A stretch of DNA of 64,000 nucleotides from Gluconacetobacter dulcium (lineage in GTDB: Bacteria > Pseudomonadota > Alphaproteobacteria > Acetobacterales > Acetobacteraceae): contig NZ_JABEQN010000009.1 of assembly GCF_014174165.1 (NCBI RefSeq), positions 1 through 64,000 of the forward strand, given 5' to 3'. The notes under the pieces were generated by a model that was not told the origin of the DNA, made no database searches, and saw only the letters and a program-made list of their open reading frames with translations. The first letter of the stretch is position 1, and every line of letters begins with the position of its first letter. Of the stretch, positions 16,010 through 60,834 are shown piece after piece. A program made the position numbers and the translations under genes.

Positions 16010-16085
16010 GTCCCATTCGTCTAGAGGCCTAGGACGCCGCCCTCTCACGGCGGCAACAGGGGTTCGAATCCCCTATGGGACGCCA
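16010..16085 (+). tRNA. tRNA-Glu (anticodon CUC)
   Basis: Acceptor stem GTCCCAT pairs with ATGGGAC, the anticodon stem CCGCC/GGCGG holds the loop CTCTCAC with anticodon CTC at its centre, and the T-arm is AGGGG-TTCGAAT-CCCCT. The 3' CCA is encoded. The integrase gene starts 95 nt downstream, so the 3' half of this tRNA is the probable chromosomal attachment site. Confidence 0.95.
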
Positions 16086-38853: not shown

Positions 38854-39116
38854 ATTTTTCTCGAAAAAATATTTGTGACGCCAGAAAATATCGGAATCCT
38901 GGGATCAATCGGGCGGTCGGATTCCCGGCGGATTCAGAGAAGGTGCTATTCGCTGAATGCCATAACCATCTGAAAAGGCTCGACGATTATTGATGGGGTC
39001 TTCGTTGGTGCCTTGCCGAGCTTGACCGAGAACGGAATCCGGCAAGGAAGGCACTTACCATAGTTCCGAAAGCCCTCGTGGAATCCTGCGGTTGTCGCGG
39101 ATCGGCTTCGGAGATT

Positions 39117-41903: not shown

Positions 41904-44900
41904 TTACCGCCCCCTGACCATCCCCTCCGCCCGATGCCGTGCCGCTTCTGCCTCGGCCCGGCGCCTCGCCTCGGCCGCCGCCTTCTCCGCCTCTGCTGCT
42001 GCCTTGGCTGACTGCCCGTCCGTCACCGCCGCCATCGTTTTTTCCGCCGGAGCCACCCTGTCTGGCGCGGTCACCTTTTCAGCGGCCCAGGATTCTTTGA
42101 TGGTCTCCATGCGTTCCTCGGCCGACTTTGGCGCCTCCTTGATATGCTCCAGAGCCACCCGCCGCATCTCGATGTCGTTCCGAACTGCCTCCTGAGCCGA
42201 CGGCGCGGATGCCCAGGCGTGCCTGTCCATCACGAAATCCGCCGCGTTCCCTTTTGTGTTGCTCTGCTGTCCCTCGTAGATGATCTGCCGGATCGTCGCC
42301 TCGCGATCGACGGCATCCCCGACATCGCCTCGGTCGGCCGCATCCGGGGCCTCCAGGCGGCCCTCATCGCTGATCGTCGCAGTTACTCCGTCTCGCCGGA
42401 TGCGGTTATCCCGAACATTCAGGCCGATGCGCGTGACGTCAGTATAAAGATGACAGTCCTCGCGGTGCCTGGTCATACCGACATAGAGTGACTCCCGGTC
42501 CAGCCCGGCGGCATTGAGAACGTAAGCCCTGTCCACCGAGGCACCCTGGGCGGAATGCACGGTCACCGCATAGGCATGCTGGACGCGAAGCGGCCTCGTA
42601 TCCGGCTGATCCCCTTCCTGCTGTGACAGCCGTTCCAGGTCACTCCATCTCGTCGTCACCTCGAATCCGCGCTCAAACACCAGAGTCACGACAGGCTGTC
42701 CGTCCGCATTGTCCCGGCAGACATCGCGAACAACCGCAACATCGTTGTTCCTTATCATGTCTTGCCCAGCCTTAATGTTTTCGCCGAAAATGATCCGATC
42801 CCCGACTGCCAGCGCTACCATCCCCGTTACCGGCTTGCGTCCCCGACTGAGCGCTTCGATCTCAATATCGTCTCCAGCGATCCGTCCCTCCTGACGCAGC
42901 AGGGCACGCAGATCGGAGTTCAGGTTCCGGACCTCATTATGTGTCCGGGCCAGGACCATGCGCGTTCCGGCCGGGTTCCGCCGAACGTCCTCAAGGTAGT
43001 CCCCGATCAGCCGGGTCCGGAGTTCCTGACCCTCGCCGATGACGATCCGGCCATGGTCATCGTATGCCCGGACGGCTTTCTCGATATCACCCGACGCGAA
43101 GTCCCGGCTGGCCTGTCTCTGCCATTCCTCTTTCTGTCGCCGGATTTCATCGATGCGCTGCGCTCCCAACGTTTCCGCCAGAAGCCGCATTGGCGACCCT
43201 GGCGCGACCGGCTTGAGTTGCCGTGTGTCCCCAGCGAGGATCACCTTTGCACCGACCCTGGCTGTCTCCCGCAACAGTTCTCGCATTTCCATCGTGCCGA
43301 CCATGCCCGCCTCGTCGAGGATCACCACGTCGTTTCTGGTGAGCCGGATTGCCTGTCCATGTTTCTCGTCGGAAATGCGGTTCAGGAATGACCGCAGAAC
43401 CGCCGCTTGCGCCTGATCGGTGTTCGTGTCCTTGGCGATGACCGATACCGCTTGATGGCTCGGCGCAGTCACCCAGACCCTCATTCCTGCATCCCGAGCG
43501 GCCTCGGCGGCGGTCCCCAAGGAGAATGATTTTCCAGTCCCGGCCGAACCTTCGACGACAGATACGCCGGCACGATTCAGCGCATGCCGGACCAGTGCCG
43601 CCTGCTCGTCAGATATTGTCCCCCGGCCGGCAATGGCCCGGTCAACGATATCACGCGATACGAATTCCCGCTCACCACGCCTGGCGAGTGCGATCCGGAC
43701 GATCTCCCGTTCCGCGTCGATCATCTCGGGCGTTGCGTAAAACCGTTCGCTGGTCCTAGCGCTGACGCCGCCAGTCAACTCGATCAGGTGTCCCGATCGG
43801 CGGGCGGCATTGGCCTGCTCGATGGCGTGATCGACGGTGACGCCGCGTCCCTGATGATGCTCCAGGACCGTTCCGATCAGGCGTCGATCCTCGATCACCG
43901 ATTCCGTCGATGTCAGTTCCGTCAGTGCCCGCTGGAATGCCGTCTGCCTGTCCTTCGGTTCGTCCTTGGCGATTGCAGATGCAGCCAGCGCGGATTCCCA
44001 AACCGACTCCCGTGTCCAGCCTTCCTCGCGCATCTCTTTGTCCCACCGCTCACGCAGTTCGGCGCGCGTCGGCATGTCTGCTTTCGATCCCCTTGTCGCC
44101 ATTGAGATGTTAGCCGCCGCTTCGCGATGGATTTCTGTGTCGATTCCCATCTTGGAGGCTGCGGCTTCGATAGCAGCGCGGCGCTTCGAGAATTTCTGTT
44201 CCAGGACCTGCGGAACGCCGAGGACGCGAAAGTTCCGCTTGACCTTAACCGTTGTTACCCCCAGTTCCCGTTCGAGTCCCTGAGCCAATGCCAAGCGATA
44301 CACTGCGCCCATCGCCTGCTGATGCCGAAGCAGTTCGAAATTATCGAGCGTCCCTGTCGTGCCGTCAGCCCGACGACACACGTTCGCTAATACCGCATGA
44401 TCGTGGAGTTGGGGATCGCCAGCGCGGCTATGACCCTGTTTGGGTTTGTGAGTGTCCGTCGGATCGCTAGGGCGGCTGGTTGTGTGCTGGAATACCGCAA
44501 CCACAATCTCGGCCGGCACCTCTTTAATCTCCCCGTTCTTGCCACGGCGAGTTACGATGAGCCCATTCTTGTGTGCATATTCCAGCGCAAAGATAGTTGC
44601 CTGACTCTGCGCCCGCTCGATTTTCTCACGCTGAATGTCAGTCCCGGAGGCCCATAAAATTGATACCGATTTTGGTGCCGCGAATTGCAGATCGTAGCCC
44701 ACCCTGCGGTTCTTGCCATGCTGAACGATCGACCTCTTTGTGAGCGGATCGCGGCCCATCGCGAGGTTCCGAAAATCTTTGGAATCGACCTCCGTGCCAT
44801 TCATCACGAACGGGAGCGGCTGGTCATCTTCGAGACGTGCATTCGTCCACCAGGTGCCCGGACGTTCTCCGGTTCCATTGTCGAGGTAGTAGGCCGCGCG

Positions 44901-45089
44901 GTCCCGGCCAGACCAGTCGCCTCGTTTCCGGCCCGTGGTGGACTTCTGTCCCGATGACGCTGCGGGGCTGTCTCCGGAGCCTGCCGAAATCTGTTCCCCG
45001 GCAGCCGTCACGGCTGCCTCGTCGGTCAAGCTCTCGTCCACGGATTCAATATAGTACTCAACGTCGGACAGTGGCGTGCAGGTGAACAT
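41904..45089 (-). CDS. MobF-family relaxase-helicase (TrwC/TraI-like)
   Basis: Nicks and unwinds the transferred DNA strand. The N-terminal relaxase domain has candidate catalytic Tyr pairs (Tyr12-13 in VEYYIES; Tyr67-68 in AAYYLD), the motif NGTGERPGTWW, and the metal-binding His triad (His202 in QHTTSR; His229 and His231 in DPQLHDHAV). The helicase has Walker A EGSAGTGKS (residues 513-521), DEAGM and TVHSAQG. The end is an Ala/Glu/Arg coil. 1061 aa, the normal size. AGGAA lies upstream of ATG 45089. It diverges from the R388 stb-like operon across an oriT-like spacer. Confidence 0.92.
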   Translation of the reverse strand: MFTCTPLSDVEYYIESVDESLTDEAAVTAAGEQISAGSGDSPAASSGQKSTTGRKRGDWSGRDRAAYYLDNGTGERPGTWWTNARLEDDQPLPFVMNGTEVDSKDFRNLAMGRDPLTKRSIVQHGKNRRVGYDLQFAAPKSVSILWASGTDIQREKIERAQSQATIFALEYAHKNGLIVTRRGKNGEIKEVPAEIVVAVFQHTTSRPSDPTDTHKPKQGHSRAGDPQLHDHAVLANVCRRADGTTGTLDNFELLRHQQAMGAVYRLALAQGLERELGVTTVKVKRNFRVLGVPQVLEQKFSKRRAAIEAAASKMGIDTEIHREAAANISMATRGSKADMPTRAELRERWDKEMREEGWTRESVWESALAASAIAKDEPKDRQTAFQRALTELTSTESVIEDRRLIGTVLEHHQGRGVTVDHAIEQANAARRSGHLIELTGGVSARTSERFYATPEMIDAEREIVRIALARRGEREFVSRDIVDRAIAGRGTISDEQAALVRHALNRAGVSVVEGSAGTGKSFSLGTAAEAARDAGMRVWVTAPSHQAVSVIAKDTNTDQAQAAVLRSFLNRISDEKHGQAIRLTRNDVVILDEAGMVGTMEMRELLRETARVGAKVILAGDTRQLKPVAPGSPMRLLAETLGAQRIDEIRRQKEEWQRQASRDFASGDIEKAVRAYDDHGRIVIGEGQELRTRLIGDYLEDVRRNPAGTRMVLARTHNEVRNLNSDLRALLRQEGRIAGDDIEIEALSRGRKPVTGMVALAVGDRIIFGENIKAGQDMIRNNDVAVVRDVCRDNADGQPVVTLVFERGFEVTTRWSDLERLSQQEGDQPDTRPLRVQHAYAVTVHSAQGASVDRAYVLNAAGLDRESLYVGMTRHREDCHLYTDVTRIGLNVRDNRIRRDGVTATISDEGRLEAPDAADRGDVGDAVDREATIRQIIYEGQQSNTKGNAADFVMDRHAWASAPSAQEAVRNDIEMRRVALEHIKEAPKSAEERMETIKESWAAEKVTAPDRVAPAEKTMAAVTDGQSAKAAAEAEKAAAEARRRAEAEAARHRAEGMVRGR

Positions 45090-46360: not shown

Positions 46361-46540
46361 CACCGGACATGGCGGCGCTGGAGAGTGCATCGGGCGGATC
46401 GGGGGATGCCTCGTTCCGCCCGATCTATATGCAGTCGCCGGTGAAAATGCCTGCAACGATCTGAGTTATTCACTCACCTGCACTACAATGACTCCATGGA
46501 ATGCGATCGGGCATTCCAGGAAATTATTGGAGTGTGCAAG

Positions 46541-47308
46541 ATGGCACAGAAGACGAAACGCCTCGTGCTCGTCGTCAGCGGCAAAGGCGGTGTCGGCAAG
46601 ACGACGTTCAGCCGCCTGATGACGGACGTGTATCGGGAACGCAACACGAAGGCCGCGATCTTCGACGCGGACGGCTTGGTTGGCGGGCTGGCTCGCGTCT
46701 ATCATGGCGCGGGCGTCGCCTTCTATGATCTTCGCGACGACGCGGATCGTGTCACGCTTCTCAATTCGATTGCCCTCGATGCCGATGTCATTCTGCACGA
46801 TCTGCCGGGCGGTAGCCTCTTTGAGATCAGCAAGATCGTGGACACCGGCGATGGGAAACAGGTCGGGGGATTCCTCGAAGCCCTGCGCGACAATGGTGTC
46901 CGGCTGACGCTCGCGCATGTCATTGATAGCGAGATCGAAAGCGCTGATAGCGTCGGCAAGCACCTCGACATGTTCGGAACGGACGGTGTCGATCATGTCG
47001 CCGTGCTGAATATGCGCGAGGCCCGTGACCCAAAGGCCGACTTCCCATACTGGTTCGGCTTCGACGACGCGGACGGCAAACGGCGCTATGGCAAGGCTCG
47101 CGATCGACTGATTGCCGCCGGCGGTGTCGAGATCACCATGCCCGCGATGCAGGCCGGGACGCGCGCCAAAATCAACGCGCTGAACCTTCGCTATTCGGAG
47201 TGCGCTCGGCACCCTGAACTGACGATCACGGAGCGATCGATCGCGTCCCAGTTCCTGCGCGGATTCCGGAAGGCCATCGAACCGGCCGGCGACTTCCTCG
47301 GCCTGTGA
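46541..47308 (+). CDS. ParA-family ATPase (StbB/TraL-like)
   Basis: 255 residues with a deviant Walker A of ParA type, VVSGKGGVGKTTFSRLM, a Walker A' region FDADGLVGGLAR and Walker B-like VILHDLPGG. Such ATPases next to relaxases help place plasmid DNA or dock the relaxosome. Start ATG 46541 gives the standard short N-terminus. It lies second in the rightward operon, 180 nt after the DNA-binding gene and 15 nt before a membrane protein gene, the same order as stbABC of R388. Confidence 0.82.
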   Translation: MAQKTKRLVLVVSGKGGVGKTTFSRLMTDVYRERNTKAAIFDADGLVGGLARVYHGAGVAFYDLRDDADRVTLLNSIALDADVILHDLPGGSLFEISKIVDTGDGKQVGGFLEALRDNGVRLTLAHVIDSEIESADSVGKHLDMFGTDGVDHVAVLNMREARDPKADFPYWFGFDDADGKRRYGKARDRLIAAGGVEITMPAMQAGTRAKINALNLRYSECARHPELTITERSIASQFLRGFRKAIEPAGDFLGL

Positions 47309-48225: not shown

Positions 48226-48443
48226 AGGGCGACAGCAAGCTCGGCGCCGGCCGGCGCGGGACCCGCGCAGCAATCACGGCCGCATACAGGGCGCGGCGGA
48301 TCGCAGCCGGCTGGGTTGATTTCCGCCGCTATGTGCCTGGCGAAATCCGGGGCGAGATCGGGAAAACGGTCAGCCGGAAAATTCGGCGCTGGCAACTCAA
48401 ACAGAACAAACCGAACGACAACGACAAGACGGACGGAGAATGA
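48222..48443 (+). CDS. Small basic protein
   Basis: 73 residues, strongly basic in the middle (RRGTRAAITAAYRARRIAAGW, SRKIRRWQLKQNK). Starts with GTG overlapping the previous stop, with GGAG 8 nt upstream. It ends 4 nt before the TpsA start, so it links the transfer genes to the adhesin gene in one transcript. May bind nucleic acid; no family recognised. Confidence 0.55.
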   Translation: MKGDSKLGAGRRGTRAAITAAYRARRIAAGWVDFRRYVPGEIRGEIGKTVSRKIRRWQLKQNKPNDNDKTDGE

Positions 48444-48447
48444 CATC

Positions 48448-51400
48448 ATGTTCCGCAACTCACGCACACGCATCATCGCTGCATTTATGCTCACGACAGC
48501 CCTATCGTCGGTTCGCGCCTCGATCGCGATGGCCGGCGCCCTGCCCACGGGTGGCGCTTTCGTTGCCGGCTCGGGCCAGATCGCCACCAGCGGCTCGGCG
48601 ATGACGATCAACCAGACGTCCGCGCGGGGCGTCATCGACTGGCGTGGATTCTCGATTGGCTCGGGCAACTCTGTGCAGTTCAACAATGGCGCCGGAGCGA
48701 CGATGAACCGGGTGACTGGCGCCCAGATGAGCCAGATCGACGGCAAGCTGGGAGCGGCTGGCTCGGTCTTCCTGATCAACCCGAACGGCGTCGTCGTTGG
48801 CCCCGGCGGGCAGGTGGTCACGAACGGCTCGTTCGTTGCGTCCACGCGCGATATCAGCAACGGTCAGTTCATAGCCGGCGGGTCGATGACCGCCTCGGGG
48901 CAGTCGTCCGGCGCTGTTGTCAACAGGGGCACGATCAGGGCTGCGAACGGCAACGTCGTGTTGATCGGTCAGAGCGTCACAAACGAGGGCGTCATCGTCA
49001 CCGGCCATCGGACTGCGGCGATGATCGCAGCGGATTCCGTCGTTCTTTCTGAGACCGGCGGGCCATCTGGCATTTATGTTGCCGCCGGTTCGACCGGCCG
49101 GGGTGACGTGACCAATGCCGGCCGCATCCAGGCGGCGGCGGTTGAACTGGCATCTGCTCATGGCAACGTCTATGCGCTCGGGGGCAACCACCAGGGGGCC
49201 ATCCAGGCGACCGGGGCTCAGGAGGTCAACGGCGAGGTCTATCTGACGGCCGGCGACGGAACGGTCGATGTTGGTGGCCGCATCACCGCCCACAACACCG
49301 ACGGCTCGGGTGGCCAGATCGTCGCAAACGGCCGTGATGTGGCGCTCGCGTCCCGCGCTGTCATGGATACAGGATCGACGGTTGCCGGCCGGGCCGGGGG
49401 CACCATCCTCGTCGGTACGTCGGGCCACGGCCAGAACCTGGCCCAGACGGTCAAGCTCGCGGACGGCGCCCGGCTGACAGCGGGAGGCAAAGGGGCCGGA
49501 CTGATCGAGACATCCGCAAACAGCGTCTCGACCGGCGCGCTGACCGTCGATGCCGGACGGGGCGGCACATGGCTGACTGACCCTGATGACCTGACGATCG
49601 ACAGCACGGCGGCGGGGACGATTCAGACGGCGCTGAATGCGGGGACGAACGTCACGGAGCAGACGACGGCATCGGGCACGTCCGGGGCAGGCACGGTGTC
49701 TGCCGGGAGTGGCGACATCAACGTCAACTCCGGCATTTCGTGGAGCGGCAAAGCGACGTTGACGCTCGATGCGTATCGGAATCTGAATGTGAACGCGCCG
49801 ATCACCGTGAATGACGCAGGCGCGGTCGTGATCCAGACGAACGGGGATGACATCTTCAACCCCGGCGGGTCGCTGACATATTCCACCCAGAACGCTGGTT
49901 CCCTGAGCGTGAACGGCGCGGCCTATACCCTGCTCTGGGGCCTTAGCGGGCTGAACAGCATCGGCACGGCCGGGTCAATCTCCGGCAATTTCGCTCTTGC
50001 GGGCAATGTCGATGATGCAAGCGCGCTGTTCACGCCTATTGCCCATACCGGCAATTTTGTTGGCGTTTTCGACGGCTTGGGCCACTCCGTCAGCAACCTG
50101 AACGTCAATGATCCCACCCATGCCGCCAGCGGTCTGTTCGGCATTTCGTCGGGGACGATCGCCAACGTCTCGGTGTCCGGCATCATCGACGGGCGCGGTG
50201 GCCCGACAACGTCCTACGTCGGCGGCGTTGTCGGCCAGAACAATGGCCTGGTGCGTGATTCTCATTCATCCGCGACTGTCTATGGTTATTATGTTGGCGG
50301 CCTGAGCGGCGGTTCTGCGACAGGGACTGCGACGATCGAGCGTTCAACATCGTCCGGCAATGTCTATGCCCTGGACGGATCGCCTTACTCGGGCGGTCTG
50401 GCAGGCACGGCTGCTTCAGTCATTGATTCCTCCGCTTCAGGCAATGTGGTCTCGTCCGTTGCCGGCTCCTGGGTTGGCGGGCTGGTCGGTTATATGACTG
50501 GCGATGTCTCCGGCTCTTCCGCATCCGGCAACGTCACCGCATCTGGCAGCGGCGTTAAATCCGGCGGCCTGGTGGGCTTTACGACCGGCGGAATTTCTGA
50601 CTCCATCGCGACCGGCACGGTTACGGCTGGCCAGAACGCCATCGCGGGCGGGCTGGTTGGTCAGGCGTCAGGCACGCTTTCCAGCGTCCGCGCTTCAGGC
50701 AATGTGACCGGCGGTGATAGTGCGACGGTCGGTGGTCTGGCGGGCCGCAATTATGGCCAGGTCACGCAAGCGATTGCGATCGGCGATGCGACCACGGGCG
50801 TCGGGGGCTCGGCCGGCGGGCTGGTCGGGCAGAACGAGGGCGGCATCAGCGTTTCCTATGCGACGGGCAATACCACGGCATCCGGCGCGACCGGCACTCT
50901 CGGCTATGCCGGCGGGCTTGTGGGCGACAATGAGGCTGCGATCTCTCAGGCATATTCGACCGGGTCGGCCACGGGGCTGACCAACACTTACACCGGCGGG
51001 CTGATCGGAAAATGGGGCGCCGGCACGGTTTCGGATACCTATGCGACGGGCCTCGTAACCGGCCAGACCAGCCAGATCGGCGGGTTTGCCGGGCTGCGCG
51101 TGGGGAATCCCGGCGTATCTCACGGTTACTGGGACACCGTGACGACCGGCACGCAGACGGCGATCGGAAAAATCGACCAATACACGTATGTCATCAATAT
51201 CAACGGCCTGACGACAGGGCAGTTCGCGCGAGGCCAGGAAACCCTGGTCGGGGGATGGGTGACCGGAGCGCCCTATGAGGTGCTTTCAGGGCTGCCCTAC
51301 ATCGTCGTGACGGGGGCTGGCTATGCCCACGAAACGTATGGCTCCGCGACCGTGACCGCGCCGAAAACAGTAACGGCCACGGCTTCAGATGGGATCGATA

Positions 51401-53700
51401 CGACGGCCGCCCTTGCCGGAATCGGCCCGTGGCACGGCTATAGCCAGAGTGCGGCGGGTAATGCCTATGCGACATGGGCCGAGGGTGTGACCGCGCCGTG
51501 GCACCAGACCGTTTATCACGCGACTGTCATGATCGATCCGGCGGCGCTGACGATCAAAGCGGGTGATGCGACATCGACGTATGGCCAGACGCCGGACGTT
51601 TCTGGAGCCGGATACACGGTTTCGGGGCTGCTCAATAGCGATTCTGTTTCTGGCCTGAACCTGTCCACGATCGCGACCAAGTCGAGCAATACCGGCACGT
51701 ATGACATCACCGCGTCTGGCGCAACCGGCACGGGGATCAGCAATTATATTGTTGTTTACCAGCCGGGGACACTGACAATCGATCCGGCGGCGCTGACGGT
51801 CATCGCCAATGACAAGACCTCGACCTATGGCCAGACGCCCGCGCTGGGGACAACGGGATTCACGGCGAATGGCCTGGTCAACGGCGACACGATCTCCGGG
51901 GTCAATCTGACGACGACGGCAACTGGCGCGAGCAGTGTCGGGCAGTATGGCATCACGGCCTCGGGCGCGGTGGGTTACGGCTTGGGCAACTATGCGATCA
52001 GCTATCAGCCGGGGACACTGACCATCGATCCGGCGACACTGACTGTAACAGCCGGGAGCGGAACGTCTGTGTATGGCGAGGCTGTGTCCACGCCCGGTTA
52101 CAAGGTCAGCGGGCTGGTCAACGGCGATACCGTGACGGCCGTATCTGTTGACAATACCGCATCGTCCGCGTCCGCCGTTGGGGATTATGCCGTTAATGCC
52201 TCGGGGGCTGCCGGCACGGGCCTGGGCAATTACAATGTGCAGTATGTCGCTGGAGATTGGTCAATCACGCCGCAGACGCTGACAGTAAAAGCGGGGAGTG
52301 GGTCGGTCGAGTATGGTCAGACGGCGGGCGGGTATGGGTTTACCGCAACCGGGCTGGCGAACGGAGACACTGTCAATGATGTCACGTTGTCAACCCCGGC
52401 GACCGCGCAGTCGAGCGTCGGGCAGTATGCGCTCAATGCCAGCGATGCGGTCGGGACGGGTCTGGGAAATTACACGATTGCGTATCAGCCGGGAACGCTG
52501 ACGATCACGCCCGCGCCGCTGACGGTGACCGCAGGGAGTGGTTCGAGCGTTTATGGAACGACGCCATCTGCCGCTGGGTATAGCGTCGCTGGCCTGGTGA
52601 ATGGCGATACTGTCTCCGGGGTCAGCGTCAATCAGCCGGTGACCGGGGCATCCGGGGTCGGGTCGTATGTGACGACGGCTTCAGCGGCGACCGGCAGCGG
52701 CTTGGGCAATTATGTGATCGACTATGAGAACGGATCATGGAACGTCACGCCCGCGACGCTGACGATCGCTGCGAATGATGCTTCGTCGGTCTATGGTCAG
52801 GCCCCGAAAACGGCCGGGTTCACGGCCAGCGGTCTGGTCAATGGCGACGCGGTTTCCAGTGTCGATCTGTCCACGACGGCGACGGCGGCTTCCTCGATTG
52901 GTGACTATGCGATCAATGTCAGTGGAGCGACGGGAACGGGCCTGAGCAATTACACGATCGGCTACCAGAGCAGCACGCTGACGATCGATCCGGCCGCGCT
53001 GACGGTCACGGCTCTGAACCAGAACTCGACGTATGGCCAGAACCCGGCTCTCGGCACGACCGGCTTCTCCGCGAGCGGCCTGGTCAACGGGGATACGATT
53101 TCGGGCGTGCGACTGACGACTGCGGCGACGGGCGCGTCTGGGGTTGGTCAGTATGGGATCGTCGCAAGCAATGCGTCAGGCGTCGGGCTGGGGAATTACG
53201 CGATCAATTATCAGGGTGGCACTCTGACTGTTGATCCTGCCGCGCTGACTGTGATTGCCGGAAACGGAACGAGCGTTTACGGACAGCCGGCCGAACTGCC
53301 GGGCTGGACGGTGAACGGACTGGTCAATGGGGATCGCGTGACATCCGTCACTGTCGATACCGGGCATACCGTTGCAAGCGGCGTCGGGACATATACGACG
53401 ACAGCGTCGGGCGCGACCGGGTCGGGGCTGGGGAATTACACGATCGCATATCAGAACGGGTCGTGGACTGTGACACCTGCTACGGTTGTCGTGAAGCCCG
53501 ACGATCAGACGAGCGTTTATGGACAGACGCCTCTTAGCCAGAATCCGGGGGTCATCGCGGTTGCTGCTGTCACGCCGGCGGCTTCGGGTGACGCGACGAC
53601 GGAGAATGACAAGGTGACGGCCGAGGCGACTGTGTCGTGCAACTCGGGCGGGAACCTGGTCGGGCAGACAGAGATGACCTGTCAGACCAGGGGGAAGTGA
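48448..53700 (+). CDS. TpsA filamentous-haemagglutinin-like adhesin with GLUG and MBG repeats
   Basis: 1,750 residues. Signal peptide (RIIAAFMLTTALSSVRASIAMA), then the TPS secretion domain with the hallmark VFLINPNGVVVGPGG. A central region has many GLUG-type repeats (GGLVGQN.G and similar), followed by eight full MBG domains of about 78 residues and a partial ninth; each has SVYGQTP, GLVNGDTVSGV and GLGNY signatures. It is exported by TpsB and probably forms a long surface fibre. There is no C-terminal toxin module, so contact-dependent inhibition is unlikely. Start ATG 48448; it belongs to the transfer operon. Confidence 0.88.
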   Translation: MFRNSRTRIIAAFMLTTALSSVRASIAMAGALPTGGAFVAGSGQIATSGSAMTINQTSARGVIDWRGFSIGSGNSVQFNNGAGATMNRVTGAQMSQIDGKLGAAGSVFLINPNGVVVGPGGQVVTNGSFVASTRDISNGQFIAGGSMTASGQSSGAVVNRGTIRAANGNVVLIGQSVTNEGVIVTGHRTAAMIAADSVVLSETGGPSGIYVAAGSTGRGDVTNAGRIQAAAVELASAHGNVYALGGNHQGAIQATGAQEVNGEVYLTAGDGTVDVGGRITAHNTDGSGGQIVANGRDVALASRAVMDTGSTVAGRAGGTILVGTSGHGQNLAQTVKLADGARLTAGGKGAGLIETSANSVSTGALTVDAGRGGTWLTDPDDLTIDSTAAGTIQTALNAGTNVTEQTTASGTSGAGTVSAGSGDINVNSGISWSGKATLTLDAYRNLNVNAPITVNDAGAVVIQTNGDDIFNPGGSLTYSTQNAGSLSVNGAAYTLLWGLSGLNSIGTAGSISGNFALAGNVDDASALFTPIAHTGNFVGVFDGLGHSVSNLNVNDPTHAASGLFGISSGTIANVSVSGIIDGRGGPTTSYVGGVVGQNNGLVRDSHSSATVYGYYVGGLSGGSATGTATIERSTSSGNVYALDGSPYSGGLAGTAASVIDSSASGNVVSSVAGSWVGGLVGYMTGDVSGSSASGNVTASGSGVKSGGLVGFTTGGISDSIATGTVTAGQNAIAGGLVGQASGTLSSVRASGNVTGGDSATVGGLAGRNYGQVTQAIAIGDATTGVGGSAGGLVGQNEGGISVSYATGNTTASGATGTLGYAGGLVGDNEAAISQAYSTGSATGLTNTYTGGLIGKWGAGTVSDTYATGLVTGQTSQIGGFAGLRVGNPGVSHGYWDTVTTGTQTAIGKIDQYTYVININGLTTGQFARGQETLVGGWVTGAPYEVLSGLPYIVVTGAGYAHETYGSATVTAPKTVTATASDGIDTTAALAGIGPWHGYSQSAAGNAYATWAEGVTAPWHQTVYHATVMIDPAALTIKAGDATSTYGQTPDVSGAGYTVSGLLNSDSVSGLNLSTIATKSSNTGTYDITASGATGTGISNYIVVYQPGTLTIDPAALTVIANDKTSTYGQTPALGTTGFTANGLVNGDTISGVNLTTTATGASSVGQYGITASGAVGYGLGNYAISYQPGTLTIDPATLTVTAGSGTSVYGEAVSTPGYKVSGLVNGDTVTAVSVDNTASSASAVGDYAVNASGAAGTGLGNYNVQYVAGDWSITPQTLTVKAGSGSVEYGQTAGGYGFTATGLANGDTVNDVTLSTPATAQSSVGQYALNASDAVGTGLGNYTIAYQPGTLTITPAPLTVTAGSGSSVYGTTPSAAGYSVAGLVNGDTVSGVSVNQPVTGASGVGSYVTTASAATGSGLGNYVIDYENGSWNVTPATLTIAANDASSVYGQAPKTAGFTASGLVNGDAVSSVDLSTTATAASSIGDYAINVSGATGTGLSNYTIGYQSSTLTIDPAALTVTALNQNSTYGQNPALGTTGFSASGLVNGDTISGVRLTTAATGASGVGQYGIVASNASGVGLGNYAINYQGGTLTVDPAALTVIAGNGTSVYGQPAELPGWTVNGLVNGDRVTSVTVDTGHTVASGVGTYTTTASGATGSGLGNYTIAYQNGSWTVTPATVVVKPDDQTSVYGQTPLSQNPGVIAVAAVTPAASGDATTENDKVTAEATVSCNSGGNLVGQTEMTCQTRGK

Positions 53701-53965: not shown

Positions 53966-55174
53966 TTAGCCCTTCCGTTTGACCAGCGACGCCGTTTTGG
54001 GATCATAAACGTATCCGGTTATTGTCCCATCTTTGATTTTTTCCACGGCTTCATTGATGACAAACAAGGGGACAAGGAACCATTCGCGAGGAATGACAGG
54101 GTTCCCGAACCTATCCTCTATCTGGATGTCCAGCCGTGCCGGATCGAAAATGCGATGGATGATGTTCTCAAGTTTTGTCCGGCTGATATTGAACAGATTG
54201 TAAGTCGCCGCGACCTCGACATCAGCTAACAGGAACGTCGGATCAAGTTTTGCATTGGCTATCCGTTTGGCAACGTCTCCCCCAGTTACGCCAATCTTGT
54301 GGACAAGGTCTCTGTTGGCCGCGATAATGGGATTGTCGGATTCACTTCTCAGAACGTAAATAGTTCCGCTTGCAAGATCGTCTTCGTCGTTGTCTCCGGC
54401 GAATAATGGCCCGGCACTGGGTTCGGACACTCGGCGGCTGGCTTCATCTTTATAAAGCGCACGCTGAAGGGAACGAAGCAGGATGTTGCTTTCGGTTCCA
54501 TTGGAATAAATGACGCGGAGACGGGCATCACTCTCACCATTGGGCGCTCTGAAGGTCTCACCAATCTCGGCAACATATGCTGTCTGACCACCCAGGATAA
54601 AAAATTCTCCCGGTCTGATGTCAGTTTTCAGGAGGCCGGCTTCTTTCCGGATAGGGCGTGTAATGCGCGTTCCGATCTCGATGTCTTTCTGGACTGCCTC
54701 GAATATCGACTTGAAAGTATCGAAATCCTCACAGCGCTCCCGGTTGGCGACTTCCTCGGCTGCCCGCTTTTCTGCTGTGGAGCGGACGTGGCGCAGTTCA
54801 GTGATTGAATTCTGCTCGATGCCGTCCACGCCGAGCATGGAAAGCAGTTCATCGTCGCTTATGTTTTCATCGATCTCTTCAATGACAATAGCATTGGAGA
54901 GAATACCCTGATGATCCATAGGCAGAAGCAATGCCATGCACTCGGGTTGCGAGCGAAGCCGATCGAGGCGGACTGCGTATAGACGCTCGAAAATGTCGTG
55001 ATCTTCCCCATGGCGGGGAGAGCGTCCGTGTTTGTCCACAAACCGCTGGATTTCCTCAAAACCAGCTATGATGCGCTCTTCTTTTGGAGTTCGGGAGGCT
55101 TCTTTCTTTGTCTCGACTTCAACGCCCAGCGCTGACAGGAGCGCATCATCCTCGTCGGTAAAACCTTTAGCCAC
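53966..55174 (-). CDS. GIY-YIG nuclease-domain protein, last gene of putative restriction operon
   Basis: 402 residues. The C-terminal GIY-YIG fold of the T5orf172/MUG113 type is clear: GTIYVLRS (residues 270-277), HKIGVTGGDVAKRI with the conserved Arg304, and the metal Glu336 in TKLENIIH. The second motif reads KIG in place of YIG, as in many members. The N-terminal 250 residues have no family I recognise and may bind DNA or the helicase. The start overlaps the end of the helicase gene by 8 nt. It is the best candidate for the cutting subunit of the four-gene system. Confidence 0.85.
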   Translation of the reverse strand: MAKGFTDEDDALLSALGVEVETKKEASRTPKEERIIAGFEEIQRFVDKHGRSPRHGEDHDIFERLYAVRLDRLRSQPECMALLLPMDHQGILSNAIVIEEIDENISDDELLSMLGVDGIEQNSITELRHVRSTAEKRAAEEVANRERCEDFDTFKSIFEAVQKDIEIGTRITRPIRKEAGLLKTDIRPGEFFILGGQTAYVAEIGETFRAPNGESDARLRVIYSNGTESNILLRSLQRALYKDEASRRVSEPSAGPLFAGDNDEDDLASGTIYVLRSESDNPIIAANRDLVHKIGVTGGDVAKRIANAKLDPTFLLADVEVAATYNLFNISRTKLENIIHRIFDPARLDIQIEDRFGNPVIPREWFLVPLFVINEAVEKIKDGTITGYVYDPKTASLVKRKG

Positions 55175-57221
55175 GAGCCGCCTCCGCCTTCATGCGGGCA
55201 AGGAACGCGACGCCCTCGGCCATGCTTTTCTCCCAGGGGTCGGTCGATGTTATGGAGGGGAGCCGGCCACGTTCCTGCATGAACTTCAGCGCTCGTTTAG
55301 ATAAAACACGCGCTTCTTCCAATGTCATCGTCGCACGTTTGGCACCGATTACGGCCGCAACCTGCTTCAGACTCTCTTCGCTCATTGCTTTAGCCAGGAT
55401 GGAATAAGCCTCCCCAAACGGATTGATGCGATCAATCAGATCAATGTCCAGTTCTCGCACGTCCATTGCGAATTTACGCACGCCATCGATCAGGGCCGTG
55501 TTGGCTCCTGGTTCTCCATCGCCACTCGTCGCAATATGAGCCGCCTGTTGTGTCAGGTTCAGAGCCGCGATGGCGTGCTGTCGAACGGCCTCCTGATCTT
55601 CCTCATCCAGTTCGGGATATTTGTCTTTGATGATTTTTCCCATGCGGGAGATCGTCAATTCCTCCGGAACGAGTTCTTTGTCGAAAAGCCCACGTTCAAG
55701 AGCGGTCTTGTCCTGCACGAAGGCAGTGATGACTTCGTTCAGGTCTTCCTGGCAGATACGGGTTGCCTCTTCGCTCCTGGGTTCGGACAGCCCCTTAATC
55801 TCGATCTGGAACTTTCCTTTCTCTTCGTTGAACCCGACATTGCATTTGTCCTGTTGGTAGCCGTCGTCTCCATAATCGAAGCCGTCAGTCGGCTCGTTGG
55901 TTGACGCTTTCGATCTGAATTCGAAGCGGGGGGCGAGAACCTGTTCCATCAGCAGACTGGCGGCAATGGCTTTAAGGGTATCGTTCACGGCCTCTGTTAC
56001 GGCCTCTTCCGAAGCATCTGGCTCGGCGATCAGGTTGGTAAAGCGAGCGCGGGTTTTCCCAGGCGCATCGCGGGTAGCACGCCCTATGATCTGGATAATC
56101 TCGGTCAGGCTGGATCGATAGCCAACGGTGAGCGCATGTTCGCACCAAATCCAGTCAAAGCCCTCCTTGGCCATGCCCAGCGCAATGATGATGTCCACAT
56201 GGTCGCGGTTGTTCTTCTGGGTTGGGTCTTTCAATGCGGTGGACACGCGGTCACGCTTGCTCTTGTCATCGTCCACCAGATCAGCGATCCGCAACGTCCG
56301 GCCGTCTTCCGTTTTTACCAACTGAAAGCCGGTGACAGGGTCGGCTCCTTGCCAATCGCCAAGCTCCTCGATGATGTGCTCCACTTCCCTCATCTTGTCC
56401 TTCGTGCTTTCGCGCGAATTGACGCTGGGGATGTGAATGATGGTTTTTTGCTGTGGGTCGAGAACCTTCAGGATGTCGTCGGCGTAAGACCCGGAGTAGA
56501 AGAAATAGCCGATGTCGAGATGCTTGAGATACCGATAGCCGTTTAACTGCTCGTAATAGGTATAGGTTACGGTATCAAACTTGGCCTCGTCCTGTGGCGA
56601 TAAGACATCGACCGCGTCGCCCCGGAAATATGAGCCGGTCATGGCGACGATATGCACTTTGTCACGGGCAATGAACGCGCCGAGGTGATGACCCAGTTTG
56701 TTGTCTGAGTCGGATGATACGTGATGGAATTCATCCACAGCAATCAGACGATCGTCGAAAGCCTCAACGCCGAACCTGTCCACGGCGAAGCGGAAGGTGG
56801 CGTGCGTGCAGACAAGCACCTTGTCGTCACTCTTGAGGAACGCTTCGACCGAATTGACCTTGCCCCCATTATCACCGCCGGCTGCATCACACAGGTTTCT
56901 TCTGGGTTCTACGTGCCAGTCTTCCCAGAAGCCGAACTGGGTCAAAGGCTCGTCATGGAAACTTGCGCCAATGCTTCTTTCAGGCACGACGATAATGGCC
57001 TGCTTCAGTCCCTGGTTGGCCAGCTTATCGAGAGCGATAAACATGAGCGCCCGGCTTTTACCCGAAGCCGGAGGAGACTTGATGAGAAGATACTGTTCAC
57101 CGCGCTTTTCATAGGCGCGTTCCTGCATGGGGCGCATCCCCATGGCATTGGCCTTGGTTGAACTCCCATTGGCCGAGTAAGAGACAGAGACGGAAGGGAC
57201 GGATTGGATTTTTTGGGTCAT
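55167..57221 (-). CDS. DEAD/DEAH-type superfamily 2 helicase of putative restriction operon
   Basis: 684 residues. Motif I IKSPPASGKSRAL (residues 48-60), motif II VDEFHH (162-167), motif III VAMTGSYF, and motif VI QIIGRATRDAPGKTRARF are all present, so it should translocate on DNA. The C-terminal 280 residues are a helical extension with no known domain. Start ATG 57221 overlaps the stop of the HEPN-like gene (ATGA); a frame extending 51 nt further upstream is not used. Type I and III restriction enzymes use the same helicase class. Confidence 0.88.
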   Translation of the reverse strand: MTQKIQSVPSVSVSYSANGSSTKANAMGMRPMQERAYEKRGEQYLLIKSPPASGKSRALMFIALDKLANQGLKQAIIVVPERSIGASFHDEPLTQFGFWEDWHVEPRRNLCDAAGGDNGGKVNSVEAFLKSDDKVLVCTHATFRFAVDRFGVEAFDDRLIAVDEFHHVSSDSDNKLGHHLGAFIARDKVHIVAMTGSYFRGDAVDVLSPQDEAKFDTVTYTYYEQLNGYRYLKHLDIGYFFYSGSYADDILKVLDPQQKTIIHIPSVNSRESTKDKMREVEHIIEELGDWQGADPVTGFQLVKTEDGRTLRIADLVDDDKSKRDRVSTALKDPTQKNNRDHVDIIIALGMAKEGFDWIWCEHALTVGYRSSLTEIIQIIGRATRDAPGKTRARFTNLIAEPDASEEAVTEAVNDTLKAIAASLLMEQVLAPRFEFRSKASTNEPTDGFDYGDDGYQQDKCNVGFNEEKGKFQIEIKGLSEPRSEEATRICQEDLNEVITAFVQDKTALERGLFDKELVPEELTISRMGKIIKDKYPELDEEDQEAVRQHAIAALNLTQQAAHIATSGDGEPGANTALIDGVRKFAMDVRELDIDLIDRINPFGEAYSILAKAMSEESLKQVAAVIGAKRATMTLEEARVLSKRALKFMQERGRLPSITSTDPWEKSMAEGVAFLARMKAEAARG

Positions 57222-58051
57222 GCTCTTTCTCCCGCGACACTGGCCAATGCCGCCTTTAATGTTTGGAAGCAAAGTGTCGCAGTGTGTTTATCTGGCGAGA
57301 AGCGGGATAACATTTGCGCGTATGGATGGATGTAATTTCGAAAATCACGAAGACCATGACTGAATTTCTGCACGTCTGGCTTCAGCAATCCTATTTCACA
57401 CGAGACATCTATCAACTGACTGAGCGTCCAGTCATGAAATAGCTTGGGCTTGCCCTCGGTGGTTTTGGGACAGGAAGATGAACGATTAAATCGTGCCGGC
57501 TCTTTCTGCGCTGCACCCAGAAGAACGGCTTCCAGCACGCTACCGCACAAAAAAATTGTGGAAAGATACGCTTTTGCAGACATTGTCGCTTGCGCTTCTT
57601 TTAACCGACTTTCGATGATAGATGCGACCGCTCCTTCAACCGGGAGTTTCTGGAGGTTTGGAATGGAAAATTCACTTTGAAGAAAGACTTCTTCAGCGGT
57701 CATAGTTTTAGTGGCAAGGGGTTTTCCGGTCAGACGTGCGACTACCTTTCGGGATTGTTCGAGAATGACTGCATCAGGTTGATTGCCATTTAGGAGACAA
57801 TTTACCTCATAGACGCCTAACATTTCATCGAGGACTTGGCCGACAATGGCGTCAGACTCTTTCTCCCAGAAGGCCCGCATTTTTCTGGCTTTTGACGAGC
57901 CATACGTCTGATATTTTTGACTATGAATCTCAATCCCGTAACGGGTAAAAAACTCCTGGAATGTTGTGTCTGAATAATCCAGAACGTAACCGCTCTGCAT
58001 CCCAAGAATTTTTTCAAGGTATCTTTTGTCGATCTCTGTAAGAGCGCTCAT
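57218..58051 (-). CDS. HEPN-like protein of putative restriction operon
   Basis: 277 residues, mostly helical. Near residue 235 the segment SHGLRDFRNYIHPYAQM fits the HEPN R-x(4-6)-H signature (Arg, six residues, His). The preceding helix AKAYLSTIFLCGSVLEAVLLGAA is typical of the HEPN four-helix bundle. HEPN proteins are often ribonucleases or toxin partners in defence systems. Start and stop both overlap neighbours by 4 nt (ATGA on each side). The HEPN assignment is by motif and needs a profile search. Confidence 0.65.
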   Translation of the reverse strand: MSALTEIDKRYLEKILGMQSGYVLDYSDTTFQEFFTRYGIEIHSQKYQTYGSSKARKMRAFWEKESDAIVGQVLDEMLGVYEVNCLLNGNQPDAVILEQSRKVVARLTGKPLATKTMTAEEVFLQSEFSIPNLQKLPVEGAVASIIESRLKEAQATMSAKAYLSTIFLCGSVLEAVLLGAAQKEPARFNRSSSCPKTTEGKPKLFHDWTLSQLIDVSCEIGLLKPDVQKFSHGLRDFRNYIHPYAQMLSRFSPDKHTATLCFQTLKAALASVAGERA

Positions 58052-60834
58052 GCCGCGCCTGCCTTTTTCTTATTCTTCGATCCGGGCCTGGCGGTCATTT
58101 TGGTATAGAGATCGAACAGTTTCTCCAGCCTTTCCGTATCATTGCGGAAACGGCGGCCAATGTAGATGCGTTCCAGCACCTCATCATTACGGTCGTGCGC
58201 CTCACGCAAATCAGCGGGCATTTCTTCGGGGTCATACAGTTCCGCAATGGTCGCGGGGAAATGAGCCTCGCGTGCCAACAGGATGTCTTCAGCGCAACGG
58301 GTCAAGTCGGCTTTCATCTTGTCGGTTAATTTGGGGACAGGGAAAGTGTTCCAGCCCAATGTGTTGGAATAAGAATAATCTGTTCTCATTCTTACACAAA
58401 CCGTCCCTATCCACACTATATGCAAGCGCGAAGCTATGAGAGCCATATTCCATAATTGGGCGTCATAAAGAGCAAAATTTCTATCACCGATGATAGTATC
58501 ATGGCCCTCAAGCCCTATGGGTAGATAATAGCGGTTTTCCGAACTCACTCGCGCAACAACGAGGGACGATTTTTGAGCGACTGACTGTATTTGACGAAAG
58601 CGGTGGGGAAAATTCGCCGCAGGACGAGTCTCAAGCGCTTTGCTTTCGGCCCTCATTTTAGAAACAGCCTCGATGCGCTTCCCTATTTCTGGTATTTCTT
58701 CTGCACTGATCCTATCTTTGTCGTTAATCCACAGACAATATCTGCTCTCGCCACGGATAAATTCCTGGGCGCCCAGAAACCGCTTAATGTATTTCTCGGC
58801 CGACGGATATTTATTGAGAAGTTCACGCCGTTCGTCTGACGTGAAGAAGAAGTTACCTCCATCCGTTGGCTTATTCCCCCACTCCATCAAGCCTCTGCCA
58901 TCTTGCGGTTTGGAAAGAGGGCTGATTATGATGTCCGAACCAGGAACTAAATAAGCGTTAATGTTCTCAACCTCCTTAACGATGGAAGTTCCGTCATCGG
59001 AAGGTCTGTAAAGACGCCGCGCTTTGGAAGCGTGATTCGAAAGGCCAATAATCGCTACAGTCACCCCCGCCTTGTTGCTTGCGAGATTAGCCCATTTGAA
59101 CGAAGTGTGAGCAAAAGAAATTTCATGGCCAGTTCTGAAAATTAGCGGCCAAAGAATAGGGACTTGCTGTCCCTGGCAAATTGAATTGGTAGAGACAAAA
59201 GCAGCTCCGGCGTTGGTTTTTGTGCCATAATCGGCCGCTTTCATAAACCAGCCAGCGACATAGTCTAGAGACTTCCAGCTTTTTGTGCGATGGCCGAATA
59301 TAGACTCTAGTTCGCCTTTCTGCGCCTCATCCTGCCATGTAGAACCGAGATAAGGAGGATTTCCGCAGATGTAGGTTTCCCCTCCCTCATTCTCGAAATC
59401 GATATGCGGCTGATCTAGTGGGGAATGAAATAGATCATCTGCGCTGTATTTCACTCCGGTTCCGGTCGGCGGGCAGATGCTCAGCCAGTCCAAACGAAGA
59501 GCGTTACCGCAGGTGATCCAATTTTCCGCGTTTAACGGCAAAAACTCAGCCAGAGCCAATTTCTGCCCCCGATACAAAACGTCACACTGAAATTCAGCAA
59601 TGATCAGAGCAAGACGCGCAATCTCGGCCGGGAAGTCGCGCAGTTCTATTCCACGGAAATTGGTCAGGGGGATTTCTGATGGCCGGTCAGTCTCTCCACG
59701 AAGGCGGTTAATCTCTGCCTCAATGGCTCGCATCTCCTTATAAGCGATGACAAGGAAATTTCCGCTGCCACAGGCCGGATCGAACACCCTGATCCTTGCC
59801 ATACGCTTGCGTAGGTTCAGGAGCATCCTGGCATTGTCGCCAGCCTCATCTAGTCGTGCCCGCAGGTCATCCAGAAAGAGAGGATTGAGCACCTTGAGGA
59901 TGTTGGGAACGCTCGTATAGTGCATACCAAGAGCGCCACGTTCCTCATCATCTGCCACGGCCTGGATCATAGACCCGAAGATGTCCGGGTTGATTTTCGT
60001 CCAGTCGAGAGTGCCGATATGGATAAGATAGGAGCGGGCGATCTTGCTGAACCGAGGCACCTCAGGGCTGCCCGAAAATAGACCGCCATTAACGTAAGGG
60101 AACCTATCAGCGTAACGAGCAATGCCAGCTTTCTTTCGCTCTGCCGTAGGGGTGTTCATTGCACGGAACAGTTCGCCAATCACCTCGTGGGTGTTAGACG
60201 AATCTCGCTCGGTCATTGTATCGACCGTGTTCGTGAAAGAGTGACCATCCTGAAAAATATCCGTGTCTTCGGCAAAGAAGCAGAAGATCAGGCGAGCCAT
60301 GAAATGGTTCATGTCATGTCGGCGGTCGGCAGTTCCCCAGTCGAGATTGTCCTTGAGTAATTCGACATACAGGCGATTCAGCTTGCTGGTCGCGCGAATA
60401 TCGAACGAACTTTCGCGGATTTGTTTGACCGTCGTGATGCCGGCTAAGGGCAGGAACGCGCCGAAATGATTCGGGAAGTCCGTATAGGCACAGGCGACGG
60501 TCTCACCTGTATCCAATTCCTCCGCCTCGAAGGTCTCACCATCCGTCGCCAGGATGAACTTGGCTTTGGCCTTAGACGTGGCTGGGCTATCCCGGAGGGC
60601 GGTCAAAGTCCGCGTCACCTCACCGGGCTGGCAGGTCGCAATATGGATGTTATTCCGCTGGAGAACGGCGCCTGGGATGTCAGAGGCATTGGTCGAGCCT
60701 TTGGCGGCCCGGAGACGCTTGATGGTGGTATCTTTGTTGCCGAAGGCCAGGAGGAAAAGGTAAGGGAACTCTTCCGCATCAAATGGTTGCTCCGCAAGCG
60801 CGGATACGGCTTCTTCAATCTCTACGGCGTTCAT
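58048..60834 (-). CDS. MmeI-like adenine-specific DNA methyltransferase, first gene of putative restriction operon
   Basis: 928 residues. SAM-binding motif I FDPACGSGNF (351-360) and catalytic NPPY (492-495) identify an N6-adenine methyltransferase. The arrangement (helical spacer EERGALGMHYTSVPNILKVLNPLF before motif I, TRD after about 560) follows MmeI-family type IIL enzymes. The usual N-terminal PD-ExK nuclease motif of MmeI is not apparent; this region instead reads FGNKDTTIKRLRAAKGST and FPNHFGAFLPLAGITT. Methylation is therefore probably separated from cleavage, which the helicase and GIY-YIG proteins may supply. Confidence 0.9.
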   Translation of the reverse strand: MNAVEIEEAVSALAEQPFDAEEFPYLFLLAFGNKDTTIKRLRAAKGSTNASDIPGAVLQRNNIHIATCQPGEVTRTLTALRDSPATSKAKAKFILATDGETFEAEELDTGETVACAYTDFPNHFGAFLPLAGITTVKQIRESSFDIRATSKLNRLYVELLKDNLDWGTADRRHDMNHFMARLIFCFFAEDTDIFQDGHSFTNTVDTMTERDSSNTHEVIGELFRAMNTPTAERKKAGIARYADRFPYVNGGLFSGSPEVPRFSKIARSYLIHIGTLDWTKINPDIFGSMIQAVADDEERGALGMHYTSVPNILKVLNPLFLDDLRARLDEAGDNARMLLNLRKRMARIRVFDPACGSGNFLVIAYKEMRAIEAEINRLRGETDRPSEIPLTNFRGIELRDFPAEIARLALIIAEFQCDVLYRGQKLALAEFLPLNAENWITCGNALRLDWLSICPPTGTGVKYSADDLFHSPLDQPHIDFENEGGETYICGNPPYLGSTWQDEAQKGELESIFGHRTKSWKSLDYVAGWFMKAADYGTKTNAGAAFVSTNSICQGQQVPILWPLIFRTGHEISFAHTSFKWANLASNKAGVTVAIIGLSNHASKARRLYRPSDDGTSIVKEVENINAYLVPGSDIIISPLSKPQDGRGLMEWGNKPTDGGNFFFTSDERRELLNKYPSAEKYIKRFLGAQEFIRGESRYCLWINDKDRISAEEIPEIGKRIEAVSKMRAESKALETRPAANFPHRFRQIQSVAQKSSLVVARVSSENRYYLPIGLEGHDTIIGDRNFALYDAQLWNMALIASRLHIVWIGTVCVRMRTDYSYSNTLGWNTFPVPKLTDKMKADLTRCAEDILLAREAHFPATIAELYDPEEMPADLREAHDRNDEVLERIYIGRRFRNDTERLEKLFDLYTKMTARPGSKNKKKAGAA

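What the first reader, a model, noticed from the sequence alone, without database searches (positions are those of the whole stretch)
53966..60834. Four-gene coupled operon: MmeI-like methyltransferase, HEPN-like protein, SF2 helicase, GIY-YIG nuclease
Seen: all four genes are leftward and joined by 4-8 nt overlaps. The methyltransferase has motif I and NPPY but no recognisable PD-ExK. The helicase has motifs I, II and VI, and the GIY-YIG protein has its Arg and Glu. Known: MmeI family enzymes normally cut by themselves. Inferred: cleavage has been moved to helicase-guided GIY-YIG, with a HEPN protein as a possible RNase or abortive arm. I cannot assign the set to BREX, DISARM or type I/III R-M by gene content.
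Basis: partly seen in the sequence, partly recalled or inferred. Interest (0 to 1): 0.85.

Follow-up and report, generated by a model that had tools for sequence, protein, structure and literature searches.

The report
Restriction operon with embedded HEPN gene
These four genes are a known kind of bacterial DNA-restriction operon with an extra, probably RNA-cutting, gene slipped in at a fixed slot that other operons of this kind fill with different defence or toxin genes; close relatives of the same extra gene sit at the matching spot of a different kind of restriction system, which makes it look like a portable back-up defence.

Summary
In detail: four leftward genes with 4-8 nt overlaps. Methyltransferase (MT), helicase (HEL) and GIY-YIG gene are the known dnmA-yeeB-yeeC set, already proposed in print as a Type I-like R-M system; the core is not new. 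The fourth gene is an embedded two-domain protein: Abi-type N-terminus plus HEPN-like C-terminus.

In 35 helicase loci sampled without regard to this gene, 16 carry an insert at MT|HEL and none at HEL|GIY; occupants include RhuM, YhcG, PD-DExK and zeta-toxin genes, and this HEPN once. Of 69 genomic HEPN relatives, 40 lie between MT and HEL, 14 between HsdM/S and HsdR of Type I R-M, 15 next to neither.

In three near relatives MT's recognition part is exchanged (30-65% identity) while partner genes stay 93-99% identical where contigs are complete, suggesting a live system.

Best reading: Type I-like R-M with a portable HEPN back-up effector, perhaps released when restriction fails (PrrC logic). 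The coupling is inferred; an independent embedded defence gene is almost as likely. HEPN catalysis is unproven. New variant of a known kind.

The parts
58048..60834 (-). MmeI-type (Type IIL-like) DNA methyltransferase, DnmA/YeeA-like; Pfam MmeI N, helical spacer, MTase, TRD and C domains; no PD-ExK pattern found in the N-terminus
57218..58051 (-). embedded two-domain protein: N-terminal ~113 aa shared with Abi_C-type and Mrr-type proteins, C-terminal HEPN-like domain with invariant R238-N-x-I-H242-P
55167..57221 (-). SF2 helicase, YeeB-like (motifs I, II, III, VI); putative translocase
53966..55174 (-). GIY-YIG / MUG113-T5orf172 nuclease, YeeC-like; Arg304 and Glu336 invariant; putative cutting subunit
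58495..59394 (-). approximate exchanged region of the methyltransferase (residues 481-780, rear of the MTase domain plus most of the TRD), divergent in L131, L132 and L133

Best explanation
The operon is a DnmA-YeeB-YeeC-type, Type I-like restriction-modification system. The MmeI-type protein reads the site and methylates it. On unmethylated DNA it calls the YeeB motor, and the YeeC GIY-YIG subunit cuts. In the slot between methyltransferase and helicase it carries a portable, probably RNA-cutting HEPN effector that is normally latent and stops growth when restriction fails or is blocked, as PrrC does beside Type I EcoprrI. Shown: domains, gene order, slot, recurrence in two R-M types, TRD exchange, purifying selection. 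Inferred: division of labour, RNase activity, latency and trigger. Confidence: core is of the DnmA-YeeBC type 0.95; HEPN is an embedded defence effector 0.75; PrrC-like coupling 0.4. The figure below is for the whole statement.
For: Core family: Pfam/PADLOC and literature passages. Slot: inserts over 180 nt at MT|HEL in 16 of 35 sampled loci and at HEL|GIY in 0 of 35 (0 of 80 measured when 13 plasmid and 32 HEPN-scan loci are added). HEPN placement: 40 of 69 in MT|HEL and 14 of 69 in HsdM/S|HsdR; in 27 of the 37 MT|HEL loci with both sides present the aligned MT end lies within 15 nt of the HEPN start. TRD exchange with conserved partners. dN/dS of HEPN 0.09-0.14 in three comparisons. The N-terminal domain also precedes Abi_C and Mrr effectors. 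HEPN proteins recur among weak Foldseek hits. HEPN/R-M coupling by PrrC analogy is in print (PMC3710099, PMC3506569; passages).
Against: 15 of 69 HEPN relatives have neither R-M type beside them (at least 3 of these are fragments). HEPN is rare among core loci (1 of 35). No Pfam, NCBIfam or PADLOC family reaches its cutoff for this protein. No Foldseek hit has E <= 0.001. The invariant motif is Rx3H; R235, which would give Rx6H, is Lys in two of 11 relatives. B. subtilis dnmA-yeeB-yeeC showed no restriction of DNA uptake or of three phages. The HEPN domain also occurs with another N-terminus beside terminase-like genes.
Confidence: 0.5

Rival explanations
1. Embedded but independent: the HEPN protein is a self-contained abortive-infection gene, with its own N-terminal sensor, that uses the R-M operon only as a safe, co-transcribed landing site, like TgvAB in a V. 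cholerae Type I R-M locus.
For: 15 of 69 relatives lie outside both R-M types. Slot neighbours are mechanistically unrelated genes: Mrr, GmrSD, Shedu C-domain, RhuM, YhcG, zeta toxin and an annotated RelE/ParE pair. The HEPN domain with another N-terminal domain sits beside a terminase-like gene in six IMG/VR contigs (by eye). TgvAB protection did not depend on HsdR nuclease activity (PMC11411939 passages).
Against: Does not by itself explain why 54 of 69 sit at the junction between modification/specificity and motor genes in two R-M types.
Confidence: 0.38
2. Relic: only the methyltransferase is active, as an epigenetic regulator; helicase, nuclease and HEPN are decaying.
For: Conclusion of the B. 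subtilis studies (PMC7261158, PMC9973331; passages).
Against: All four frames intact; HEPN, HEL and GIY dN/dS 0.04-0.10 against L131 and L132; TRD exchange with constant partner genes; the V. crassostreae deletion result as cited in PMC9973331.
Confidence: 0.07
3. Integral subunit: HEPN is a fixed fourth subunit needed for restriction in this branch, a true four-part system.
For: Tight 4-nt overlaps and DNA similarity to L131 and L132 that spans just the four genes.
Against: Three-gene cores without it are common (plasmid examples L038, L040, L202, L206), and the same protein family sits in a different R-M type.
Confidence: 0.05

Closest known systems
B. subtilis DnmA(YeeA)-YeeB-YeeC and homologues ('Type I-like' R-M)
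   Same: MmeI-type MTase without nuclease motif, SF2 helicase, GIY-YIG/T5orf172 protein, same order
   Different: the window's operon has an extra HEPN-like gene in the MT|helicase slot; the B. subtilis genes are called a non-functional relic, these look under selection
PrrC-EcoprrI (the order hsdM-S-prrC-R is recalled)
   Same: HEPN-class protein gene between specificity/modification genes and the motor gene of an R-M system
   Different: PrrC has an ABC-ATPase N-terminus; this protein has a ~113-aa Abi-type N-terminus; coupling unproven here
TgvAB and RloF in Type I R-M; GmrSD-like HEC genes in Hma (all as told in PMC11411939)
   Same: defence genes embedded inside another defence operon
   Different: other protein families and host operons; here the host operon is of DnmA-YeeBC type
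MmeI / Type IIL enzymes
   Same: same five Pfam domains, MTase and TRD
   Different: no PD-ExK pattern found; cutting presumably by separate genes
AbiJ / Abi_C and DUF4145 HEPN proteins
   Same: N-terminal sensor-like domain plus C-terminal HEPN-like domain, R-M association
   Different: the window's protein is below the Pfam cutoff; Rx3H motif invariant

Membership tests
DnmA-YeeB-YeeC type R-M | MmeI-type MTase lacking PD-ExK | tested here: met
   (0 of 20 N-termini match D-x8-20-[DE]xK); the MmeI alignment starts only at MmeI residue 108 or 103
DnmA-YeeB-YeeC type R-M | adjacent SF2 helicase then GIY-YIG/T5orf172 gene, same strand | tested here: met
DnmA-YeeB-YeeC type R-M | m6A methylation at a non-palindromic site | not testable with these tools
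   needs long-read methylation data
MmeI / Type IIL single-chain restriction enzyme | N-terminal PD-ExK nuclease in the same chain | tested here: not met
   pattern search only; the place of the MmeI catalytic residues is recalled
Type I R-M | separate HsdM, HsdS and HsdR | tested here: not met
   MT carries MTase and TRD in one chain; motor and GIY-YIG nuclease are separate genes
HEPN superfamily | Rx4-6H motif | tested here: inconclusive
   R238 and H242 (Rx3H) invariant in 62 of 62; R235 (Rx6H) at least 90%, Lys in L026 and L027
HEPN superfamily | HEPN helical-bundle fold / profile match | tested here: inconclusive
   DUF4145 12.3 bits against cutoff 23.1 for the window's protein, E <= 0.1 in 10 of 62 members, best 0.0013; HEPN structures only among Foldseek hits with E > 1 for the better model
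PrrC-type guard of R-M | gene between M/S and R genes | tested here: met
   40 + 14 of 69 relatives, 15 not
PrrC-type guard of R-M | latent RNase held by the R-M complex and released on its inhibition | not testable with these tools
   experiment needed
DISARM / BREX | DrmA/DrmB or PglZ/BrxC partners | tested here: not met
   MT matches DrmMI (104 bits, partial) and PglX far below REase_MTase_IIG (969 bits); no such partner among the six genes scanned; genes further away were not scanned

The most novel reading that the evidence does not exclude
The HEPN protein is a portable guard that plugs into two mechanistically different R-M kinds at the junction between the modification/specificity gene and the motor gene, sensing a state both share (for example a stalled or inhibited DNA-bound MTase-motor complex) through its Abi-type N-terminal domain. 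It would be a general fail-safe rather than a PrrC-style, one-system partner.
Probability: 0.27. Interest if true: 0.72.

Novelty: new variant of a known kind. Interest (0 to 1): 0.5.

Why it matters
The junction between methyltransferase and helicase in DnmA-YeeBC loci acts as a hot spot for defence and toxin genes, and the same HEPN family occupies the matching junction of Type I loci. That makes the old 'immunity coupled to suicide' idea directly testable by moving one effector between two R-M chassis. It also argues that the DnmA-YeeB-YeeC family, judged a relic in B. subtilis, is a live R-M family elsewhere. The slot can be read as a list of uncharacterised defence genes: occupants with no Pfam match at E <= 0.1 include proteins in L037, L087, L090, L101 and L151.

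Tried and rejected
Rejected: BREX/DISARM membership; an obligate four-gene system; phage origin of the full protein (no tblastn match at E <= 1e-5 in 50,697 phage records; of 14 viral-contig loci only L213 matches the full length, and it carries MT and HEL pieces). In plasmids 0 of 71 matching records cover 80% of the protein.

Led nowhere: PDB sequence searches with the helicase and the GIY-YIG protein (no hit) and with the HEPN profile (two hits, best E 0.6, unrelated by name). The first structure model, from an 11-row alignment, left most of the motif region below pLDDT 50; the 62-row model reached mean pLDDT 88.5. The VIA-align library was absent. dN/dS of the MT 5' part failed because my coordinates were misaligned. 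For L133 the HEL figures (92%, dN/dS 0.263) include sequence past its contig end and are not trustworthy. Promoter/terminator scan: 7 promoter-like sites against 5.0 expected and 3 terminator-like against 8.2. Search for a published MmeI-HEPN link: 1 paper, on archaeal S-layers by its title, listing only. Other literature searches. Payne et al. 2024 was seen only as cited in PMC11411939; Morgan 2009 and the V. crassostreae study only as cited in PMC7261158/PMC9973331 (Morgan 2009 is not held). Of 264 plasmid records with a helicase match 13 were read.
Full report
1. What is there. The four genes are as described: MT 58048-60834, HEPN-like 57218-58051, helicase 55167-57221 and GIY-YIG 53966-55174, all leftward, overlapping by 4, 4 and 8 nt. 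MT has all five MmeI Pfam domains and matches a PADLOC IIG model over residues 5-916. It aligns to solved MmeI (5hr4) only from residue 91, or from profile position 83, and the first 115 residues hold no D-x8-20-[DE]xK in 20 of 20 aligned N-termini. The helicase has motif I, II, III and VI patterns. The last protein matches MUG113/T5orf172, with Arg304 and Glu336 invariant in 19 of 19.

2. The core is known. A B. subtilis operon, dnmA(yeeA)-yeeB-yeeC, has the same three genes. PMC7261158 and PMC9973331 (passages read) report m6A at GACGAG, cite Morgan 2009 for a Type I-like R-M proposal and for homologues lacking the endonuclease motif, found no effect on DNA uptake (the first) or on three phages (the second), and the second cites a V. 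crassostreae study where deletions raised sensitivity to some phages. PMC9973331 also says that an uncharacterised protein family near dnmA could be another member of the locus in some bacteria. The helicase family occurs in 17 of 385 class and 22 of 398 phylum genomes at E <= 1e-60, own genome counted in both. A DNA search with the Klebsiella helicase gene matched 99 of 5,426 E. coli genomes, 90 of them over at least 80% of the query.

3. The slot. All 35 non-own helicase matches were fetched with flanks. An insert over 180 nt lies between MT and HEL in 16 of 35 (15 of 25 with helicase identity 60% or more, 1 of 10 more distant), and between HEL and GIY in 0 of 35. Of 12 measurable plasmid loci 4 have an insert at MT|HEL. 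HEL|GIY inserts number 0 of 80 over all loci measured (35 + 13 plasmid + 32 HEPN-scan). Two of the 16 are doubtful as genes (L096, 83 aa of low complexity; L111), by eye. Occupants by Pfam/PADLOC: RhuM (L086; L095 by cluster), PDDEXK_4/PDC-S26 (L085; L103 by cluster), YhcG/DUF1016 (L089; L099 fragment by cluster), Xre-M78 (L099; L100 by cluster), zeta toxin (L084), a reverse-transcriptase-like gene (L100), proteins with no family (L087, L090, L101; L082 only a weak DUF4411 match) and this HEPN (L100). L083 holds a 94-aa ORF that was not scanned. On plasmids: Schlafen AlbA_2 (L039) and an annotated RelE/ParE pair (L204). Second genes beside HEPN: Mrr (L154), GmrSD (L155), Shedu C-domain and NucS/PDC-S11 (L164).

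4. The HEPN gene. In 299 genomes of the order 19 have a match at E <= 1e-3 and 8 at E <= 1e-100 (own included). Of these 8, 6 are in the MT|HEL slot and 2 (L026, L027) lie between hsdS and hsdR of a Type I locus with an hsdM and a Fic-like gene (hsd and Fic names by eye). A class sample (11 of 385 at E <= 1e-3) gave another Type I case, L122 (hsdM-hsdS-HEPN-M78-hsdR), and a lone copy, L123. A scan of genomes of 84,980 species returned 69 loci. Classified by tblastn: 40 MT|HEL (37 with both sides, 3 cut by contig ends; MT within 2.5 kb, HEL at any distance, in L136 6.3 kb), 14 HsdM/S|HsdR (13 + 1; L188 is degraded), 15 neither. Of the 15, L193, L195 and L196 are fragments, L171 begins 450 bp from a contig end, and L182 keeps the HEPN-M78-PIN-like order seen in Type I loci. 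Hosts include Alpha-, Beta- and Gammaproteobacteria, Mariprofundus, Acidobacteriota, Chloroflexota, Rhodothermota and Myxococcota. On the protein tree the least number of switches between the two R-M contexts is 4, but support is weak: counting the unlinked rows too, starred branches force 2 changes for the MT|HEL label and 1 for the Type I label. Repeated transfer is likely, not shown.

5. Protein architecture. Residues 1-113 are shared with plasmid 'abortive infection family' proteins. Of four proteins scanned that share this N-terminus, one matches Abi_C (L209), two Mrr_cat (L128, L129) and one nothing (L130). The C-terminal part recurs at 44-51% identity in 12 of 14 viral-contig loci (27% in L226; L213 is the full protein) with a different N-terminus; in L219, L220 and L222-L225 it follows a large terminase-like gene (by eye). 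R238, N239, I241, H242 and P243 are invariant in 62 of 62. That spacing is Rx3H; R235 gives Rx6H but is Lys in L026 and L027. The published motif is Rx4-6H (PMC3710099 passages). DUF4145 scores 12.3 bits against a cutoff of 23.1 for the window's protein and reaches E <= 0.1 in 10 of 62 members, best 0.0013. The 62-row model has mean pLDDT 88.5 and pTM 0.56. Foldseek gives no E <= 0.001; HEPN structures (Csm6, AbiA, a HEPN toxin, 2hsb; 1ufb with TMt 0.62, whose HEPN fold I recall) recur among many unrelated helical proteins. The HEPN call is probable, not proven.

6. Is it live? Against L131, L132 and L133 (Gluconacetobacter sacchari, Acetobacter lambici, Komagataeibacter rhaeticus), MT is 93-100% identical per 60-residue block up to residue 480, 30-65% from 481 to 780, 55-82% in the next block and 86-98% after 840. 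HEPN is 94-97%; HEL 98-99% and GIY 93-95% in L131 and L132, while the L133 contig ends inside HEL. The DNA match to L131 and L132 starts 18-35 bp before the MT start and ends 6-34 bp inside the GIY end: the four genes seem to have moved as a unit, with exchange of the recognition part. dN/dS against L131 and L132: HEPN 0.10 and 0.09, HEL 0.04 and 0.05, GIY 0.09 and 0.08; HEPN against L133 0.14.

7. Mechanism. Most likely MT recognises and methylates, YeeB moves on DNA and YeeC cuts (inferred from domains and the printed proposal). The HEPN protein is a back-up effector embedded where R-M loci take up such genes. PrrC beside EcoprrI and RloF/TgvAB in other Type I loci are precedents, and the printed hypothesis that R-M-linked HEPN proteins act when restriction fails covers this case in principle (PMC3710099, PMC3506569, PMC11411939; passages). 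Whether the HEPN is held by the R-M complex or acts alone cannot be settled from sequence. TgvAB, whose protection did not need HsdR nuclease activity, and the 15 of 69 unlinked copies argue for caution.

8. Verdict. The core is an already described R-M kind. The HEPN-bearing form, its recurrence at the same junction of two R-M kinds, and a census of the slot in DnmA-YeeBC loci were not found in print in my searches (the main text of PMC3710099 holds neither 'GIY-YIG' nor 'T5orf172'). The library lacks most subscription papers and bioRxiv, so absence is not shown. I rate it a new variant of a known kind.

Noticed in passing
window 34326-37100, 41904-45089, 46496-47308: TraG/TraD-like, MobF-relaxase-like and ParA-like reading frames (by eye) left of the operon suggest a conjugative or integrated element; GC is 50-55% over 54-62 kb against 63% at 52-54 kb, and a tRNA-Glu lies at 16010-16085.
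   Followed up: no
window 39078-40883 and 48316-53700: A two-partner-secretion-like pair (transporter and large repeat-rich filamentous haemagglutinin-like protein), by eye.
   Followed up: no
L100 248-7345 and the same contig L136: MT|HEL slot swollen to about 7 kb holding HEPN, a DUF1828 protein, a reverse-transcriptase-like protein (PADLOC RT matches) and an Xre-M78 gene, all inside one R-M operon.
   Followed up: partly
L219, L220, L222-L225: In IMG/VR contigs the same HEPN C-terminal domain with a different N-terminus sits right after a large terminase-like gene (by eye), possibly a prophage-borne defence gene.
   Followed up: partly
L122, L126, L163, L167, L182, L195, L197, L198: The HEPN gene, or a fragment of it, is followed by an M78 (ImmA/IrrE-like) gene and in some (L126, L167, L182, L197) by a PIN/DUF4411-like gene; in L122, L126, L163, L167, L197 and L198 hsdR comes next or soon after. 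A second conserved embedded module of Type I loci.
   Followed up: partly
L178 7240-8004 and L100 3544-4320: DUF1828-family proteins occupy both a Type I slot and a DnmA-type slot, a second family shared between the two R-M kinds besides HEPN.
   Followed up: partly
L037 8222-9004, L169 8834-9604, L183 8828-9580: Unnamed ~255-aa family: a slot gene in L037 and L183 and, by eye, directly after a lone HEPN gene in L169; no Pfam match for L037 or L169.
   Followed up: partly
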